NCBI GenBank assembly: GCA_963855995.1
Contig: OY979716.1
Coordinates: 123,690,237 to 123,754,236, forward strand
DNA length: 64,000 bases
Direction of reading: 5' to 3'
Source: Muricea muricata
Taxonomy: Eukaryota; Cnidaria; Anthozoa; Malacalcyonacea; Plexauridae
The translations under genes were made by a program, and so were the position numbers. Below, one piece after another: positions 18,139 through 55,816 of the stretch. Every line of letters starts with the position of its first letter. Positions within the stretch are counted from its first letter, which is position 1. A model generated the notes under the pieces. It saw only the letters and a program-made list of their open reading frames with translations, was not told where the DNA came from and did no database searches.

Positions 18139-18565
18139 GGTGTGTTAATTTAACACACCTTTTTGTCCAAATTTTAACACACCTTATGGTGGGTTTTAAA
18201 ACACGCCTTAAGGTGTGTTTAACGCACCCTAAGTTGGGTTTTACAACACACCCTTAGGTGTGTTTAATACACGTTAAGGTGTGTTAAACACACCTTTAGG
18301 TGTGTTACAAAACGCACCTTAAGGTGTGTTTTCTGCCTGTCCAAATTTCAACACACCTTAAGGTGGGTTTTGTATAAAGGTGTGTTTTCTAGCACACCTT
18401 GGTGCGTTTTCTAACACACCTCGGTGTGTTTTCTAGCACACCATGGTGTGTTTTCAAACACACCTTGGTGGGTTTTGTTACACACCTAGAAAGTGCTTTA
18501 TATCACACCTTCACAGAAGGTGTGTAATATAACACACCAATAGACATGCTTTTTTACACACCTTT
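18139..18565. repeat. Left array of AAGGTGTGTT/AACACACCTT
   Basis: About 25 half-units of the motif with small variations (GGTGGGTT, GGTGCGTT), arranged as palindromes. Confidence 0.9.
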
Positions 18566-21366: not shown

Positions 21367-21724
21367 CAAGGTGTGCTTTCTAACACACCTAGCTGTGTTT
21401 CTCAAGCTTGTGCATGGTGTGTTCCAAAACACACCATAGTGTGTTTTCATCAAAAAGGTGTGTTTCCCAACACAGCTTGTATTTTTCAAAGGTGTGTAAT
21501 AAAAGGTGTGTAAAAATAGGGTGTGTTTTTGTACACATCTTGGTGGGTTTTCTTACACATATTGATGTGTTTTCCAGCACACCTTGGTGTGTTTTCCAAC
21601 ACACCATTGTGTGTTTTCTGATTATAAGTAAAAAGGTGTGATAAAATTACACACCTTTGCGTGCTATTGTGCACACCTTGTGTGTACTAAAACACACCTT
21701 GGTGTGTTATTAAACACACCTGTT
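21367..21724. repeat. Right array of AAGGTGTGTT/AACACACCTT
   Basis: The same motif as at 18139-18565. The open frames on both strands here (21389-21674) are by-products of the repeat. Confidence 0.9.
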
Positions 21725-38207: not shown

Positions 38208-38575
38208 GTGCAATATTCAAGAACTCATTCGCATTCACTAAATTAACTATTCATAATCAACAGATTGTATTTATATTTAAAAACGTAAATATTCTTATTC
38301 AACAAAACTCTTATTCATATTCAACAAAAATCCAATTCATGCATATTCAACAAAAATCCTATTCATATTCAACAAAAATCTTATTCATATTCAACAAAAA
38401 TCTTATTCATATTCAACAAAAATATTATTCATATTCAACAAAAATCTTATTCATATTCAACAAAAATCTTATTCATATTCAACAAAAATCATTCGCATTC
38501 AACAAAAATCGCATTCACATTCAACAAAAAAAATCGCATTCATATTCAAACATTCACATTCAACAAATCCCAGAA
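38208..38575. repeat. Left inverted arm of the HECT/integrase element
   Basis: Starts GTGCAATATTCAAGAA, then CACTAAATTAACTATTCAT and TTTATATTTAAAAACG, then about nine tandem units of TTCATATTCAACAAAAAT. The inverse of the same string of features occurs at 55566-55816. The HECT-like reading frame starts at 38613, just inside. The open frame across it is repeat-derived. Confidence 0.8.
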
Positions 38576-41738: not shown

Positions 41739-43445
41739 GCCATTGCAGAAGCACCAGCACCAAAAAACCAATTTGAAATGAGAAGTTTCCTAGGTTCCAT
41801 ACAATTTTGTGCCAAATTCATTCCCCAGTTTGCCACGATATCCGCTCCTCTTTGGGACCTAACCTCCAAAAATGCAAAATGGCAGTGGGGCTCCAAAGAA
41901 GCAGCAGCATTCTCCCAAATTAAACATTTGTTGACTTGCGCACCGGTCATGGCTTATTACAACCAAAACGCAACAACACGAGTAACCACAGATGCATCAC
42001 CAGTGGGCCTAGGGGCCATCCTTGAACAAGAGCAACCTGATGGTGGATTTCGACCTGTCTATTATGCCAGTCGCAAACTGTCTAAAACTGAACAGCATTA
42101 TTCTCAATTCGAACGAGAAGCCCTCGCTGTGAAGTGGGCATGCGAAAAGTTTTTCCTGTTTCTCTACGGAACCGAATTTGAGATACGGACAGACCATAAA
42201 CCCTTGATCACAGTCCTAGCAGCAAATTCCAAGCCCCCATCTGCTCGAATCGAACGGTGGCTCCTGTATCTGCAGCAATTCCGTTACAAAATCACTCGTA
42301 TACAGGGAAAATACAACTCTGCTGATGTCCTAAGCCGCTTACCAGTTGGCCCTGCCCAATCCAATGACTCCGCAGCAGCTAAAGTTTACGCATGCAGTGT
42401 AGTGAGCGAAGCCGTGCCGTCTGCTCTAGCCGCCAAAGAAGTTGAGCTCGCCTCTGAAAGAGATCCTACCTTAAAATTAATCCGAGATGCCGTTACCAGT
42501 GGAGATTGGAAACATCTATCCGGTACCATGTACAAAGCCATATCTGACGAGATCTGGGTCTTGGGACAAATCGTCATGCGCGGCCATCGTATTATAATAC
42601 CTGAGAGCCTCCGGAAACAGACGTTGTCACTGGCACACGAGGGACATCAGGGCATTGTCCGTATGAAAGCCCGATTAAGAGAAAAGGTATGGTGGCCAAA
42701 CATGAACAAACAGGTTGAACAGCTTGTCAAAGCTTGCTACCAATGCCAATTAGTGGGACCACGACCCAAACCAGAACCTATACGGTCCACAAAGCTACCC
42801 GAAGGCCCTTGGAACGACATTGCAGTGGACCTCCTTGAAATCCCAGCTGGTAACCACCTCTTAGTAGTGATCGACAATTTTTCCCGCTGGCCCGAAGTAG
42901 TGTTGGTCAAGAAGACGGACGCACAACATATAATTACAGCAATGGAAGGCATATTCAGAACACACGGCCTTCCCCAAAGCATCCGAAGTGATAATGGACC
43001 CCCTTTTGCATCAAAAGAGCTCGAAAGCTTCTTAGAACATCTTGGCATCGAACACAGAAAAGGCATACCCTACTGGCCCCAGAGTAACGGCGAAGTTGAG
43101 CGATTCAACCAGACCATCTTGAAAGTCATCCGCATAGCCAATCTTGAAGGAACAAACTGGAGCACTGCGCTCGAGAACTTCCTATTCCAATATCGAACGA
43201 CGCCCCACTCTACGACCGGTTTATCACCAGCCAAACTCCTGATGGGCAGGACCCTTCGTGACAAACTTCCCAAGGTAACAATACCCGAGGACAGAGCAAC
43301 CGAAGCAGAATGGCAACAGCTCCTCAGAGAAAGAGACGCCCTGTATAAACTAACAAAAAGAGTACGCTGACACAAAAAGATCTGCAGAATATAGCATCAT
43401 TCAGGAGGGTGATGAGGTCCTCTTGAAGCAAACACGCGAAAATAA
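41739..43445 (+). pseudogene. Gypsy RNase H and integrase
   Basis: RNase H: VTTDASPVGLGAILEQ, then FEREALAVKWACEKF and IRTDHKPL. Integrase: H2C2 zinc site HEGHQGIVRMK with CYQC, then the catalytic triad in AVDLLEI, RSDNGPPF and NGEVERFNQ. The frame shifts near 43352 and continues in another frame (YADTKRSAEYS, then GDEVLLKQ) up to 43445. There the DNA transposon is inserted with TAA duplication, and the same frame continues at 49826. Confidence 0.92.
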
Positions 43446-43485
43446 TGCACCTATCAATGTTAGCCGGCAGGGGGGGGAGGCCGGG
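43446..43485 (+). repeat. Left TIR (40 bp) of the PHD/TDP-43-N transposon
   Basis: A perfect inverted match to 49786-49825. Confidence 0.95.
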
Positions 43486-43743
43486 AAAACCAGGGGATTT
43501 GATTGAAAATTTTAATTTCTTGTCAAATATCCGACCCAGGGAACTTCTTTCATAGTCAAATATGATCAAATTCCCGCTATTGGAAGAAAGGTGATGACCA
43601 AAAGATTACAGCACGACGTAGAAAACACAAATTTTAATTTCAACTTTATTCCAGATGCTGAGCATTCATATTAAATTACACAGAAACTTCAATATAAAAC
43701 TTGACAAAAATCTTGTGAGTATCATAACAGTGATCCTTTAAAA

Positions 43744-46700
43744 CTACCAATTGCATTCTAAGCACATCCACATCTCTGGTAAACATCCCTCAATTAATCC
43801 TACGCAATCAACATGATGCCAACGCAGGCAGCTATCACACTGTATCCAAGAAACTGTGCATTGTTCATTGTCTAAAACTGGATCTCGCAGGTGACAAATC
43901 ATACAAAGTTCATTGTTCTTATCGCCTTCATCCACTGTTTGTTGCAAGTCACGATTCCCTTGGACCTGTATGTTTTGTGTTTGCTCTTTTTCCTTAGCCT
44001 TTCGCTTTCTTGTTTCTGCTGCTTTCTTAGCTCCTCTTTTCCGGTTTTGATGAATTTGGTGGAGATGCTCGAACCAAAACTTGACTTCTTCTGGAGTAAG
44101 AAGCACCTTTCTCGCTATTTGATGTATAATTTCTTCACTGGGTACAGACTTTGATTCTTGGTAGACTGTAAGAATCACATCTGATGGTGGGGAAGGATTT
44201 CCAACTACACCATTGGAATTATAATGTTCAATAAGCTTGTCAGGCTTCATGAAGTGCCCTGCACAAAGGCCTTTACATTCTTCACACTGTCCTCCGTAAG
44301 GTCTGAGTGGATCGGGTGTGGGTATGGGTACAAACTTCAAATTTGGCCCACTTGAATACCAGCAACGTTGTGGATCACTTCGCTCTCTTTGACACACGGG
44401 ATGAATGCAATTTGGTTGATAGCAACAAAGAAGGTAGAATAAATACTTTGAAGGAAACAATGGATTGCACAGGTGCCTTTGACGTAATTGCCATACTCTT
44501 TCAAACTTTTGGTACATTTCTGCGTGATTTGCTTTCAGTTCCTCCTTTTGTTTCTTCTTGCCTTTGAGAAAAATATTTAACAATTTACTTTCTTGTCTCT
44601 CAGTAGCACTCTCGGCTCCTTTGTACATATGTATTTTTGTTGATGCACAAGGAGCACCATCAACTCTGGAGATATAAACAGCAATTGCCGCTTCTAAGTT
44701 CTTATGCAACAAGCTTTGGTCAATCTGACCGGACTCAGAACGGCACGAGCCATGCAGCGTTGATGGAATGAAAACGTTAGCATGTGCTAACGCCAGACAC
44801 CCATTCTGCAGTTCAACACGGTTAAGGTAACTTCCACCACTGCTCCGAGATGTCACCATGAGAGCTCTAGTACCTTTCTCAAGGTGTCTCAAAGTCCACC
44901 AGTACTGTATTTCTTGGTGAGCTGGACCCTCATCGAAGCTTCCATCGACCCTTATACATTCAACGTCTTTCATATCAGCATTGATTGGATTAGTGAATGC
45001 CGGCTTGATAGTATCTTGTTGCTCCAGGAATCTGAGATCAGCCATGTGCTGTGGAGGGCCTTTTTCGTGAAGTCCTGCAGCCTTCACAACGCCCGCACAT
45101 ATTTCACCAGTTGTTGCTGTTGCTGGGAAGTTGTACGAAGTTGTTTGCAAGGTTGAAGGATAGTTGTTGACGTAATCTGTCCGCGTCGTTAAGGCTTCTT
45201 TTCCTGATACACATAGTGACGCATGGAGTTTGTGAGTGCTCATAGTATCAAGCCGGAATCCGGCTTGATCATCCCTTCCAATATTTGCAATGTTGGTACC
45301 ATCAGTGTACTGGATTTTATTTAGTCCAGAATATAATGCTGAACTCCAGTGACTATCCGGGTTAAAACGAAGGTTGAATCCTTTCCTTGCCCGTCTATGC
45401 ACAACTTTAGCGATTCCCTTATAGCGACCAGCAGAACGCCTTCTCTTATTCCTTGCAATGCACATCTGTACTACACTTCCATATGCAAAATTGCGATTGT
45501 ACTTTTTCTCTAAAAATGCTTTGATGCGTTTGAAAGTTGCCTTTTTTTGAACTTTTCTGTTGCCGTCAAAGGTAACAACGCCAGTCCGCCGCCAGGCATC
45601 AGCACCTGCACCGCACTGGGAAACATACTCTTCTATTGCTTCACCAATTCCGGGACATTCTTGAATTATTTTGCCAACTCGTTTACTGCGTCGTCTTTTA
45701 AGGAATCTTTTTTCCATTATTTTTCTTTTTGCCTCTCTGGTTGCCTTCCTTTTTAAGGACGCTCTCTTCTTTTGAATAAGTAGTCTGCCATTATTGTCAA
45801 AAACATTTGATACCCCGTTCTTCCACACTTCTGCATCACTTGAATCTGAGTCCGAGACTATCATTCCATCTTGAAGATCTGCTTCTTTTTGCGAACTCTT
45901 ATTGACAAGAACGAAAGCTTGTCTGGATTGTTGAAGAAGCATGTTATCTTCTTTACGCAAGCCCGGCACGCTGGGAAGTTGCTCACTAATGGTCAAAAGC
46001 GACTGTTCGATTGTTTCTTTGGGTAGCAATGGGAATTTTTTACTTATGGCCTCCTCGAGTGCAAACCAGTTAAACTTGGTAAGTTTTAAAACATCTAATA
46101 TATCTTCAGATTTTACTTCTGTAATATCTGGCTGCTCGTCCTGATGAGACGTATCATCTCTGGTACACACCATATCATTCTCAACACCAGCATAATGTTC
46201 CTTGCGCTGTTCGGATAACTGACTATCATCATCCTCTTCACTGTCAGACGTGTCGTCGTTGCTCATAGTGTCTTCCAAGCCAAAAGATTCCAAGAGTGCC
46301 CTATCCTTCAGATGTGCAATATTCATTATTGAATCCTTAAGTTCACATGCTTCTTTGTATGCTGATTCTACTGCTTCAACCCTTCTATTCATATTATGAA
46401 AACCGAACACTTTTTGTGCTTTTCCAGCAGACATTCCAGCCGATTTCACAACTGCATACTTTATACGCTCTTTTTCCGCTTCACTTTCAGCAAGGGTGAG
46501 CAAATTTTTCATTTCCTCCTTAGTAACAAAGGATGCGCGATTTCCAGCCGTCTTTCCTATAACCTCATTCAAAAGTGACTGAAACACAGCATAGTTAGTA
46601 CCCGTCTGTTTTTCTACCAAATATATGCAGTAAGTTCCTGCAGTCTTACTACCAATCCCAACTGCAGCAAAAGGCATTTGCAGCAATTTTCTTTTGGCAT

Positions 46701-46983
46701 GATATGATGTATAAGTAACACCTGGGCTGCACATTTCGAATGCACGTTTTAATGTAATGTACCCTTCCTGCTTTACATGCTTGGCAACGCTTAGTTGTAA
46801 ACTACAGTCTTGGCAAGTCTTTGCATGATGTGCTTTGCAAAATAGAGAACGAGCTTCAATATACTGTGCCAAACTTAATCCCTCAAATTTTGAAACGTAA
46901 ACATCATCTCTGATCTGTTCATAATTGGACAAGTTCATGCTTTTCTGGTGTTTATAAATCTCTAGGACGTTTTTCCCTTTCAT
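43744..46983 (-). CDS. Large DDE-like transposase candidate with C-terminal PHD finger
   Basis: A single uninterrupted frame of 1079 residues. Residues 1-240: Cys-rich region (CKAHHAKTCQDCSL at 49-62) and helices. 238-290: acidic. About 380-437 and 510-535: strongly basic, nuclear-localisation-like. 558-745: a probable RNase H-fold core with Asp561 (QYTDGTN), Asp680 (IRVDGSFDEGPAHQE) and Glu724 (LNRVELQNGC) as the best catalytic triad. 850-910: Cys-rich (CCYQPNCIHPVC, CEECKGLCAGH). 958-995: a homeodomain-like helix and basic stretch (TPEEVKFWFEHL, NRKRGAKKA). 1027-1077: PHD finger, C4HC3 with Cys1027/1030/1049/1052, His1057/Cys1060 and Cys1074/1077. A PHD finger could guide insertion by reading histone H3 tails. 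I do not recognise a named superfamily. The D-D-E call is an inference; an upstream 5' exon may exist. Confidence 0.82.
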   Translation of the reverse strand: MKGKNVLEIYKHQKSMNLSNYEQIRDDVYVSKFEGLSLAQYIEARSLFCKAHHAKTCQDCSLQLSVAKHVKQEGYITLKRAFEMCSPGVTYTSYHAKRKLLQMPFAAVGIGSKTAGTYCIYLVEKQTGTNYAVFQSLLNEVIGKTAGNRASFVTKEEMKNLLTLAESEAEKERIKYAVVKSAGMSAGKAQKVFGFHNMNRRVEAVESAYKEACELKDSIMNIAHLKDRALLESFGLEDTMSNDDTSDSEEDDDSQLSEQRKEHYAGVENDMVCTRDDTSHQDEQPDITEVKSEDILDVLKLTKFNWFALEEAISKKFPLLPKETIEQSLLTISEQLPSVPGLRKEDNMLLQQSRQAFVLVNKSSQKEADLQDGMIVSDSDSSDAEVWKNGVSNVFDNNGRLLIQKKRASLKRKATREAKRKIMEKRFLKRRRSKRVGKIIQECPGIGEAIEEYVSQCGAGADAWRRTGVVTFDGNRKVQKKATFKRIKAFLEKKYNRNFAYGSVVQMCIARNKRRRSAGRYKGIAKVVHRRARKGFNLRFNPDSHWSSALYSGLNKIQYTDGTNIANIGRDDQAGFRLDTMSTHKLHASLCVSGKEALTTRTDYVNNYPSTLQTTSYNFPATATTGEICAGVVKAAGLHEKGPPQHMADLRFLEQQDTIKPAFTNPINADMKDVECIRVDGSFDEGPAHQEIQYWWTLRHLEKGTRALMVTSRSSGGSYLNRVELQNGCLALAHANVFIPSTLHGSCRSESGQIDQSLLHKNLEAAIAVYISRVDGAPCASTKIHMYKGAESATERQESKLLNIFLKGKKKQKEELKANHAEMYQKFERVWQLRQRHLCNPLFPSKYLFYLLCCYQPNCIHPVCQRERSDPQRCWYSSGPNLKFVPIPTPDPLRPYGGQCEECKGLCAGHFMKPDKLIEHYNSNGVVGNPSPPSDVILTVYQESKSVPSEEIIHQIARKVLLTPEEVKFWFEHLHQIHQNRKRGAKKAAETRKRKAKEKEQTQNIQVQGNRDLQQTVDEGDKNNELCMICHLRDPVLDNEQCTVSWIQCDSCLRWHHVDCVGLIEGCLPEMWMCLECNW

Positions 46984-47551
46984 ATCATGAAAGGGAGAAA
47001 CCGAAAATCCTGCTTCTCTATGTCTCCAATTTGAGTTTCTATATATAAATAAAAATAAAATTTACCATGTTACTATAAATTACCAACAGAATTTGAACAG
47101 CTAAATAGAATCTGCATCTGCACTTACAATAAAACCAAACAACACAATTAAAAATTTGGCAATAAATCATAACAATCTTCCATTTGATTTAAATGGATTG
47201 TTGAACAATAATAATAGATTGCACAGTACTATTTAGTGCACTCTTGCCCCAATTGCCTCGATTTCATGTGGTTATTTCCTCATATTTTGCAAGTTCAAGG
47301 ATATATTTGTGACTGGGCTCAGTATCAAAGGAAAACATATTTGCACACGAAACATGGAGACACAACCTTCACACGTACTGCCATGCTAAAATAGACAAAC
47401 ATAGAAACGAGACCAATGGGACAAAAGTGCTATAGATTAATTGGCAAAGTAAACAAAACTTGTAAAAATATACAGCAAACGTTTGTGTTAAATGTACCAC
47501 ACCAATTGTTAAAACAAGTTTGTATACTCATTACAGCTATTTTCACAGTGT
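46984..47551. other. Spacer between the two transposon genes
   Basis: AT-rich, no open frame. It probably holds the 3' UTR of the upstream gene and the promoter or 5' UTR of the transposase-like gene. Confidence 0.5.
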
Positions 47552-49560
47552 TTAGTGTGCAGTAGATATTTCTGTATCACCTGAAGAATTATCTGAGCTA
47601 TCACTGTCCAAGTTTACACATTCCTTGTTGCTCAACTCTTCATTATCCTTGCCCATTCTTTGGAAAGCAGCTTTCAAACCACCACTTTTCATAGGCTTAG
47701 CTTGAGGACTTGCAAGGGATGTGGATGTTTTATTCTTGTGATACCACACTGATTTGGACTCTTTTTTCTGTAAGACTGCTAGCTGCTTTGAGTAGTCATT
47801 CTTTTCTTTAAATAATTTCCTGATCTTGTCAGAAATTTCAGCACACTGACTGTAGTTATTAACAGTTTTAGCTCTGCCTAGCTCTAACTCTCGCATTTTA
47901 ATGTTGTCTTCTGCCATGGAAATTAACTGTGACAAGTTTTGTATCTCTTTCTGTCGTTCACCAGACATCAGCTTTGCTCTTTTGGGGCGATTGCCGTCAT
48001 CTTCACTGCTGGCACTGCTCGATGATTCAGATCTGGAGTATCCTTTTTTGTACTTATATGAACCTTCTGACCTGACCTTTTCAACAGCTTTTTGGAGAAG
48101 AGTTCCTAAAAGACAATATAAAAATAAAGAATGAGTCAGACAAATAAACTTTATAAACAAGAAAAGAAGTATTGTTTTTAGATTTAGCTTTTTAGATTGT
48201 AAACAGCTCAAAAAATCCCAATATTGAATTTGATTTTGAAACTCGATCTCGCTATCTCACCTATATTTACACTCATTAAAGGAAAGTTTTTTGCAAACAG
48301 TACCTCTTTGGGTCAAGAGTGTTGGGTCATCCTTTGCTAGTTCTGCTGCAGCAGTGTTTACTGCCTCTTCATATGGTTTTAAAGGTCTTTTCATATCTTT
48401 GTTGAATATTCTGGCACTTTTTGCAAAATCATTATCTAGCTTTACAGGTTCCTCTGAATCCTTATAATAAATAAACATAATTTCAAGATATTAGCTAACT
48501 TGAGCATTTCATTGAATATGTGAAAATAGACTACAATCATTAGTAGAATAATTTCAGCAACACAAAAAACTAGTTTTGTTTGTTGGCTCAAGCAGAATTT
48601 GAACAATACAACTACTTACAGTTAATGTTGGTCCAATGGTAAGTGATCCTCCTTCAAGAACAAGTGTTTTTTGGCCACCTGAAGGCTTAGGCTTCTGTTT
48701 AATGAATATTTCAGGATCTGAAAATATATAGTATTATGACTAGATGGACTTTAAATATGTTAATTGTCAGTATAAACACATTCAATATAAGTATAAACAA
48801 TAAACATATGGCAACGATTAAAATCAGTCTCAACATGCATGTTGCTATGTTGTCAAAGGTTGTGGTTTGATTGTGATTCTATGAGTTATCTTGTTATCCA
48901 ACTCCCCATTCCAGACATTCCACCCATATCCTACTCCTGACAGAAATATGAATATATCCTAGACCTGCCCCTGCAGCCCTGCCTACATTCTATTATAAGG
49001 TTATTTGACAAAAGGAAGTTGTATTTTTGCTTCATTAAAAACATATCATTCATTTGCATACCAAGAATTGTATATATCCAAATGCTACTTTTATTAATAC
49101 CTTTTATAGTGGTTGTATCTTTGTCACTTGTGACAACATGGTAGATTCTATTTCCCCAACCATGTTTTGGTGGTAAGAATTTCTCGCCAGTCATCCTGAT
49201 GCCTCTTGAGCGATTATTATCAGCGTTTTCATTCGGCCAGTAGAGTAGTTCAGTAGCTGTCGACCATTGAGATTTTAGAGTACTAAACAACAGTGATTGA
49301 TCGTCTTCAAGCTCCATTTCCACCTCCTTCCCTTGGTGACAAATGACAACACATTCTTCTGGTTCCACATCTTGACAAATAAATGTTAACATTATATTTA
49401 AATATTTTTACTTTGAGAAAAGTAGAATACAAGACCAAACAAGTTTAGTTTAATTTGTGATGAATATTTATTAACAAAAAGCCATTTAATATATTTAAAT
49501 ATTAATATATTTAAATCAATGACACAATCAACACTTACCGCGTTCTGCATTGCCCGCCAT
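47552..49560 (-). CDS. Five-exon gene, TDP-43 N-terminal-like domain plus coiled coil
   Basis: Exons by splice sites: 49560-49539, 49370-49101, 48717-48620, 48460-48304 and 48105-47552. Phases fit (1, 1, 0, 1) and the sum is 1101 bp, giving a 366-residue protein with one stop. Exon 2 encodes a compact domain with EECVVICHQGKEVEMELEDD, then STLKSQW, a RGIRMTGEKFLPP block and GWGNRIYHVV. The order and GWGN-x2-Y-x-V core match the N-terminal oligomerisation domain of TDP-43. Exon 4 is helical, and exon 5 has a Ser/Asp-rich part, a coiled coil (QKEIQNLSQLISMAEDNI onward) and an acidic tail (NLDSDSSDNSSGD). There is no RRM. The domain likely mediates head-to-tail self-assembly, perhaps of the transposition complex. 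Alternative: a domesticated accessory protein with a regulatory role. Confidence 0.8.
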
Positions 49561-49785
49561 TTTGAAGAACTGATATAAACACGTGTTGGTATAAACAAAA
49601 TTAACCCCAGATGTACCATTGATGTTCCTGTGATCCAACTGTGTCCCTGCTGCTTTATATATGCGAAACAACAAAATGGCCTCCAATTTTTTTCAAATTT
49701 GTCAAACGCCCCTGCCCCGGGACTGTTTTGATGGTCAAATTCCCCATTCATGGGATATACTTTCTCGTCAAATCCCGCCCCCTTG

Positions 49786-49825
49786 CCCGGCCTCCCCCCC
49801 CTGCCGGCTAACATTGATAGGTGCA
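49786..49825 (-). repeat. Right TIR (40 bp) of the PHD/TDP-43-N transposon
   Basis: A perfect inverted match to 43446-43485. The TAA duplication follows at 49826-49828. Confidence 0.95.
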
Positions 49826-50099
49826 TAAGTTGGATACAAATTTCGAACCAACACCCTATAAAGTTGTCCAGAAAGACGGCAACGCCTTATTACTTGAGAA
49901 CGATGAAGGTGTTCGAAAGATGCGCAACGTAGCGCATGTAAAGAAACTGGTTAAGCAGTCAAGTGCTGATGGTCCTGCAGAGACGATGGTATCAAAACAT
50001 TCAACCCTTCCTGTCTCAACACCAGAAACTACCGCTGACTCGCGTCCTGTGCGTCAAAGGAATGCGCCGTCGAGATACGAAGACTATATACTTGTTTAA
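49826..50099 (+). pseudogene. Gypsy integrase C-terminal domain
   Basis: Continuation of the integrase interrupted at 43445: KLDTNFEPTPYKVVQKDGNA, then a MRNVAHVKKLVKQ block and a Pro/Ser tail ending SRYEDYILV and a stop at 50097-50099. The first block is the SH3-like GPY/F-type module that follows the Ty3 integrase core. A polypurine-like run (GTTGGTGGGAGA) lies just before the 3' LTR at 50223. Confidence 0.88.
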
Positions 50100-55565: not shown

Positions 55566-55816
55566 GGCCTGTTTATATGAAATTTTGTTGAATGCGAATG
55601 ATTTTTGTTGAATATGAATAAGATTTTTGTTGAATATAAATAAGATTTTTGTTGAATATGAATAGGATTTTGTTGAATATGCATGCATGGGATTTTTGTT
55701 GAATGTGAATAAGAGTTTTGTTGAATAAGAATATTTTCGTTTTTAAATATAAATACAATCTGTTGAATATGAATAGTTAATTTAGTGAATGCAAATGAGT
55801 TTCTTGAATATTGCAC
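55566..55816. repeat. Right inverted arm of the HECT/integrase element
   Basis: The inverse of the left arm: ATTTTTGTTGAATATGAATA units (about five), then the TTTTAAATATAAATACAATC, TAGTTAATTTAGTGAATG and TTCTTGAATATTGCAC blocks. Its inner edge starts GGGCCTGTTTATATGAA, resembling the start of the Harbinger-like MITE at 15228, which leaves open which edge is the true terminus. Confidence 0.78.

What the first reader, a model, noticed from the sequence alone, without database searches (positions are those of the whole stretch)
43446..49825. A recent DNA transposon pairing a PHD-finger DDE-like protein with a TDP-43-N-like protein
Seen: 40 bp perfect TIRs, TAA target duplication, an uninterrupted 1079-codon gene and a five-exon gene whose phases and total length fit exactly. 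The second protein begins with a domain bearing the GWGN-x2-Y-x-V core and preceding RGIR block of the TDP-43 N-terminal oligomerisation domain, but has no RRM. The large protein has a possible Asp561/Asp680/Glu724 triad and a C4HC3 PHD finger. I cannot place it in a known superfamily. Inference: a self-assembling accessory protein plus a chromatin-reading transposase.
Basis: partly seen in the sequence, partly recalled or inferred. Interest (0 to 1): 0.92.

Follow-up and report, generated by a model that had tools for sequence, protein, structure and literature searches.

The report
Transposon with swappable self-assembly domains
A recently active animal jumping gene carries, beside its cutting enzyme, a helper protein whose front end is the self-assembling domain of the ALS protein TDP-43, and related elements in the same genome carry a different self-assembling domain in the same slot, which suggests that chain formation matters for how these elements move.

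Summary
Confirmed: a complete 6,380-bp DNA transposon (43446-49825) with 40-bp perfect inverted ends and a TAA duplication, beside a Ty3/gypsy-type pol frame; a second copy is 99.92% identical. It encodes a 1,079-aa protein with a predicted RNase H (DDE) core and PHD finger, and a five-exon, 366-aa helper whose exon 2 is a true TDP-43_N domain (Pfam 6e-16). The first catalytic Asp is probably D571 or D572, not D561. New: the helper's rear half lies upstream of the transposase at 14 of 14 loci read in this genome, but its front domain changes: TDP-43_N, CIDE-N or an unnamed domain; an octocoral relative with an 81%-identical transposase has yet another. TDP-43_N and CIDE-N are published head-to-tail polymerising domains; six of seven tested TDP-43 contact residues are kept in four of four transposon versions. 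The transposase tree disfavours one TDP-43_N clade (p-AU 0.015, group named afterwards). Best reading: a transposon family whose helper must polymerise, by whichever domain. The superfamily is unresolved. Polymerisation and its role in transposition are inferred, not shown.

The parts
43443..43445 (.). target site duplication, left copy (TAA)
   Evidence: right copy 49826-49828; TTA at the second full copy L009
43446..43485 (+). left terminal inverted repeat, 40 bp, perfect with the right one
43744..46983 (-). transposase gene, 1079 aa, one open frame: predicted DDE/RNase H core about residues 533-783 (D571/D572, D680, E724), homeodomain-like helices about 940-972, PHD finger about 1037-1078
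47552..48105 (-). helper gene exon 5: end of NCD2-like part, Ser-rich and basic stretch, coiled-coil hairpin, stop
   Evidence: coiled coil modelled on relative P0121
48304..48460 (-). helper gene exon 4: start of the NCD2-like part
48620..48717 (-). helper gene exon 3: GGSLTIGPT motif, similar in the other helpers aligned
49101..49370 (-). helper gene exon 2: TDP-43_N domain
49539..49560 (-). helper gene exon 1: start codon, MAGNAER
49786..49825 (-). right terminal inverted repeat, 40 bp
49826..49828 (.). target site duplication, right copy (TAA)

Best explanation
This is a recently active cut-and-paste DNA transposon of a family with two genes on one strand. The large protein is the DDE transposase, with an RNase H core and a C-terminal PHD finger that probably reads histone H3. 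The helper is a NAB-like scaffold: an N-terminal head-to-tail polymerising domain, an NCD2-like region and a coiled-coil hairpin with basic stretches. The polymerising domain is a replaceable cassette: TDP-43_N here, CIDE-N or others in relatives. Proposed mechanism: helper chains form on or near the element, gather transposase and bring ends 6.4 kb apart together (or hold many transposases at H3-marked chromatin). Shown by sequence: the gene pair, the domains, their change along the transposase tree, and the retained contact residues. Predicted: the transposase fold. Inferred: that the chains form, that they bind transposase or DNA, and that they help transposition.
Confidence: 0.6

Rival explanations
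1. The helper is a chromatin or transcription regulator of the element rather than a part of the transposition complex: like NAB co-repressors (oligomerising domain plus NCD2) it polymerises to set expression of the transposon or to fight silencing.
For: NCD2-like region shared with NAB proteins, whose other conserved region is itself a SAM domain (Pfam SAM_NCD1 plus NCD2 in P0131; profile hit 5.4e-9); PHD finger on the partner.
Against: NCD2 score is under the cut-off in the window protein (24.3 of 25); no known binding partner; pairing with the transposase fits either role.
Confidence: 0.25
2. No exchange took place: all front domains are one ubiquitin-like (beta-grasp) domain that diverged beyond recognition into TDP-43_N-like and CIDE-N-like forms.
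For: TDP-43_N is ubiquitin/DIX-like in fold (PMC5491494, passages), and CIDE-N is (recall) also of that class; all sit in the same slot, with a phase-1 intron behind it in 4 of 5 spliced models (in the fifth, C16, other donors nearby are possible).
Against: The transposon TDP-43_N is clearly kin of host and human TDP-43 (E 1.1e-13 to human), with the splice donor of the C4-14.0 copy at the same residue and phase as in the host TARDBP exon; the CIDE-N hits are kin of DREP2/DFF40 and are coded by two exons. Two host-type families in one slot need at least one exchange unless host TDP-43 also came from here.
Confidence: 0.1
3. The TDP-43_N exon is a passenger: a host exon picked up by chance, as transposons often do, without a role.
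For: Capture of host exons by DNA transposons is common (recall). The only substitution count made, between one intact and one decayed copy, has dN 0.039 and dS 0.057 over 79 codons, which is no sign of strong constraint but is too small to tell.
Against: The exon is spliced in frame in two families, at 30-43% identity to host and human yet with 6 of 7 published contact residues kept; CIDE-N occupies the same slot in relatives.
Confidence: 0.05

Closest known systems
PIF/Harbinger (PHIS superfamily)
   Same: TWA target site duplication and two genes, transposase plus a second protein (PMC4482050, passages)
   Different: Second protein there is Myb/SANT; here NCD2-like with a changing front domain. 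No DDE transposase family stands among the 25 families shown (of 38) for 40 proteins
IS630-Tc1-mariner group (Tc1/mariner, pogo, Zator, Sailor)
   Same: Core region aligns with Mos1, SETMAR, Sleeping Beauty, tied with IstA and retroviral integrases; E motif SYLNRVEL resembles SPDLNPIEN/HCELNPIEL (PMC8533490 section 15); pogo-Fot also makes TAA duplications (PMC7386202, passages)
   Different: 1079 aa with PHD finger, separate helper gene, TWA rather than TA
RAG-like transposons
   Same: two-gene DNA transposon of animals (search listing and starts of abstracts only)
   Different: there the PHD finger is on the partner RAG2 (recall), here on the transposase; no Kelch or RAG hit at E<=1
TDP-43 (TARDBP) N-terminal domain
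   Same: Pfam TDP-43_N; contact residues shared, and splice donor phase as in the host gene
   Different: no RRM hit; fused to NCD2-like region and coiled coil
NAB1/NAB2 co-repressors
   Same: oligomerising domain (SAM NCD1) followed by NCD2 (P0131)
   Different: TDP-43_N, CIDE-N or others in place of NCD1; NCD2 remote

Membership tests
Cut-and-paste DDE DNA transposon | terminal inverted repeats and short target duplication in several copies | tested here: met
   matching TWA duplication at 6 of 7 loci with both ends read
Cut-and-paste DDE DNA transposon | RNase H fold with D-D-E/D in place | tested here: met
   predicted only; strand 565-577 (D571/D572), two more strands, D680 after strand 674-679, then E724; conservation; alignment to DDE enzymes
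PIF/Harbinger | TWA target duplication | tested here: met
PIF/Harbinger | second ORF with Myb/SANT domain | tested here: not met
   no Myb/SANT at E<=1 in the 366-aa helper
PIF/Harbinger | transposase of the Harbinger DDE family | tested here: inconclusive
   no DDE family among the 25 shown of 38 Pfam families for 40 proteins; no profile-profile comparison run
IS630-Tc1-mariner group | RNase H core related to mariner | tested here: inconclusive
IS630-Tc1-mariner group | TA duplication | tested here: not met
   TWA; but TAA is known in pogo-Fot
Zator | transposase kin of TP36 | tested here: inconclusive
   Pfam PF07592 (its link to TP36/Zator is recall) is not in the tables; a genome search for it did not complete
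TDP-43_N domain family | score over Pfam cut-off | tested here: met
TDP-43_N domain family | head-to-tail polymerisation | not testable with these tools
   contact residues 6 of 7 kept (N76 lay beyond the chain used); needs protein
CIDE-N domain family (relatives in the same genome) | score over Pfam cut-off | tested here: met
   (some exons joined by eye; the single exon of L012 alone gives 4.7e-14)
NAB (NCD1 plus NCD2) | NCD2 over cut-off | tested here: inconclusive
   24.3 of 25 bits in window, 29.1 of 25 in the C4-14.0 helper, 22.7 in C4-12.3
SAM domain (octocoral relative P0121 front end) | Pfam SAM or PDB SAM match | tested here: not met
   low-confidence four-helix model; the resemblance is by eye only

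The most novel reading that the evidence does not exclude
These elements form an undescribed superfamily in which head-to-tail polymerisation of a helper is a required step of transposition, so that any polymerising domain works and domains are exchanged; and the traffic may have run both ways, the N-terminal domain of animal TDP-43 having itself come from such a helper gene (transposon domestication), later serving in RNA processing.
Probability: 0.08. Interest if true: 0.97.

Novelty: new variant of a known kind. Interest (0 to 1): 0.8.

Why it matters
If polymerisation is the conserved property while the domain that provides it changes, natural domain swaps have already done the experiment that tells which property of a transposon helper matters. 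It would add filament-forming scaffolds to eukaryotic cut-and-paste transposition, give a natural context in which the TDP-43 N-terminal domain works without its RNA-binding and aggregation-prone parts, and supply near-identical, intact two-gene elements for a transposition assay. It also touches the open question what the second protein of two-gene transposons does; for the PHIS group that was called unknown in 2015 (PMC4482050, passages).

Tried and rejected
Superfamily placement: Pfam scans of the transposase and 39 relatives showed no DDE family (25 of 38 families shown); the 30 PDB sequence hits at E<=1 were short matches to PHD or other zinc-finger proteins at the C-terminus; Foldseek no hit at E<=0.001; two classification papers not held. 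KolobokP was considered: Kolobok makes TTAA duplications and KolobokP's second protein is a His-Me nuclease (PMC9587614, passages), so it does not fit. Viral contigs: 37 pattern matches, 0 confirmed relatives. SAM reading of the octocoral front end: no support; kept only as a by-eye lead. Unnamed front ends: no match; 'ubiquitin-like' is by eye. Model of P0121: mean pLDDT 54, front end unreliable; its fold search shows only the coiled coil. Substitution count for the TDP-43_N exon between C4-14.0 and C1-36.9: 3 synonymous and 7 nonsynonymous changes in 79 codons, dS 0.057, dN 0.039; too few, and C1-36.9 is a decayed copy; the transposase part of that script ran across a frame shift and is void. 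The splice model for C1-85.0 failed and the one for C1-119 was not finished; their CIDE-N exons were joined by eye. In the C16 model I chose among possible donors to keep the frame. Literature: the listings (20 of 40; 15 of 41; 17 of 17; 15 of 25; 10 of 14,326; 10 of 133) show no paper on this transposase family or on TDP-43_N or CIDE-N in a transposon; Repbase was not on hand.
Full report
What is in the window. Positions 43446-49825 hold a 6,380-bp element with 40-bp perfect terminal inverted repeats and TAA on both sides. It lies just behind a frame with RNase H, integrase zinc-binding and rve domains of a Ty3/gypsy-type retroelement. That frame already ends at a stop at 43371, before the insertion; the codons on the two sides of the insertion run on without a break if one TAA is counted, in another frame than the scanned one (read by eye). 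An empty copy could not be searched. The window lies in a 453-Mb assembly. Its nearest relatives by protein are two loci of the octocoral Dendronephthya gigantea listed with contigs of the same length, 1,171,076 bases (P0001, 80% identical to the transposase; P0121, 67% to the helper), so the host is probably an octocoral (inference).

Copies. A second full-length copy on contig C2 differs at 5 of 6,380 bases and has TTA on both sides. A 1.02-kb internally deleted copy keeps both ends (L010). Of 7 loci for which I read both ends (window, L009, L010, L011, L012, the C8 copy, L013), 6 have matching TTA or TAA, in L011 at a right end whose last bases have changed; L013 has TTA and CTA. The genome gave 54 match segments to the transposase (a lower bound). 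Ten of these are one family at 40% identity with almost equal scores; of the four fetched, three are 99.95-99.97% identical to the first over 5,847 bases.

The helper. Five exons, four GT-AG introns, 366 aa. Exon 2 is TDP-43_N: 58.5 bits against a cut-off of 27.1; best PDB sequences are TDP-43 (3.9e-4). Behind it come a GGSLTIGPT motif, an NCD2-like region (24.3 of 25 bits) and a coiled-coil hairpin (modelled with high confidence on P0121 residues 234-303). A profile of five helpers finds, besides the ten relatives, a NAB1-like protein of Physella at 5.4e-9 over 15% of the query, and one further protein with NCD2 at 8.6e-4.

The front domain changes. I read the upstream side of 14 distinct transposase loci: window, C2-6.9, C1-71.1, C4-12.3, C12, C8, C4-14.0, C1-36.9, C4-7.4, C1-119, C1-15.7, C16, C2-4.5, C1-85.0. 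L025 and the other hits were not read; L027-L029 repeat C1-15.7. All 14 carry the helper body, whole or in part, on the same strand. Front domains: TDP-43_N at 4 (window, C2-6.9, C1-71.1 partial, C4-14.0); CIDE-N at 6 (C4-12.3, C4-7.4 partial and C1-85.0 by Pfam; C1-119; C12 and C8 by near-identity); an unnamed domain, ubiquitin-like by eye, at 2 (C1-15.7, C16; 32% identical to each other); none seen at C2-4.5 in 3.8 kb read as open frames; C1-36.9 has a TDP-43_N exon about 10 kb upstream whose membership I did not establish. P0121 of Dendronephthya shares the body (68% identity in the alignment) but has a different, helical front end; it is a gene prediction and could be wrong there. In the models of window, C4-12.3 and C4-14.0 the introns behind the front domain have phases 1, 0, 1; C1-15.7 has 1, 0 and C16 0, 0.

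Tree. A 21-row maximum-likelihood tree of transposases puts the window beside Dendronephthya (100/100) and the C4-14.0 TDP-43_N element with CIDE-N elements (94/93, just short of the program's mark). Over the 10 rows with known front end the tree needs five changes, two for TDP-43_N against CIDE-N alone; holding window, Dendronephthya, P0002 and C4-14.0 together is rejected with p-AU 0.0146. The group was named after I had seen the tree, so this p is optimistic, and the front end of P0002 is not known.

Origin of TDP-43_N. The genome has 12 TDP-43_N matches, best at C5:16030294 (93.9 bits). That locus is the host TARDBP gene: the exon is followed by both RRMs and a Gly/Met-rich tail, read by eye from the open frames. 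Its first coding exon ends in phase 1, after 14 residues counted from the G of GWG, and so does the C4-14.0 transposon exon; in the window the exon is six residues longer, with the same phase. Host and human share 58%, host and transposon copies 30-40%, so the transfer is old or the copies evolve fast. Capture from a host gene is the simpler direction; the reverse is not excluded.

Why polymerisation. TDP-43_N forms head-to-tail chains through an acidic face (E14, E17, E21, Q34) and a basic face (N45, R52, R55, N76), and E17A/E21A or R52A/R55A abolish this (PMC5491494, passages). CIDE domains form head-to-tail helical filaments through opposite charged faces (PMC8647176, passages). In all four transposon TDP-43_N sequences 6 of 7 tested contacts are identical to human (E14 is lost, N76 not tested), hypergeometric P 0.003 for the window and 0.015-0.022 for the other three; the four are related and not independent. 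For the C4-12.3 CIDE-N I mapped the published DREP3 residues by eye through the alignment, with an offset of 111 inferred from the spacing: 3 of 4 basic positions keep Lys and 4 of 5 acidic ones stay acidic; at 165 the chain has Glu where the passage prints Asp, so the numbering is not fully certain. The shared property of the two identified domains is thus chain formation; for the other two front ends nothing is known.

Mechanism and limits. I propose that helper chains gather transposase and ends. That the helper polymerises, binds transposase or DNA, and helps transposition is inferred. A regulatory role like that of NAB co-repressors is the main rival. No paper on this family was seen in the listings, but Repbase was not available, so the transposase family may already have a name there.

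Noticed in passing
41778-43370 and 49821-50099: The element sits just behind a Ty3/gypsy-type pol frame (RNase H, integrase); a stop lies at 43371, before the insertion.
   Followed up: partly
38290-38530 and 55583-55733: Tandem arrays of the same 22-bp unit in opposite orientation (TATTCATATTCAACAAAAATCT and its reverse complement, by eye), one on each side of the transposon region.
   Followed up: no
18172-18487 and 21488-21721: Two neighbouring groups of arrays with a self-complementary 22-bp unit (GGTGTGTTTTCTAACACACCTT type).
   Followed up: no
L026, L027, L028, L029 (C1:15690585, 56194873, 95788918, 114365530): A second family (40% identical transposase) with about ten copies of almost equal score; of four fetched, three are 99.95-99.97% identical to the first: a very recent burst, with an unnamed front domain on its helper.
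   Followed up: partly
L048 (G000:C5:16024300-16030550): Host TARDBP gene; first coding exon is the TDP-43_N domain and ends in phase 1.
   Followed up: yes
P0131: A Physella NAB1-like protein (SAM NCD1 plus NCD2) is the best host-type match to the helper body; NAB and the transposon helper share the plan oligomerising domain plus NCD2.
   Followed up: partly
L043 (G000:C2:54780441): A further TDP-43_N exon (57% identical to the window's), with a stretch like the C-terminal part of the transposase (by eye) on the same strand: a remnant of another related element.
   Followed up: partly
L013 and L014: Further places with related TIRs: L013 has both ends about 0.8 kb apart (2444 to about 3267, TTA/CTA flanks), L014 one end; contents not studied.
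   Followed up: no
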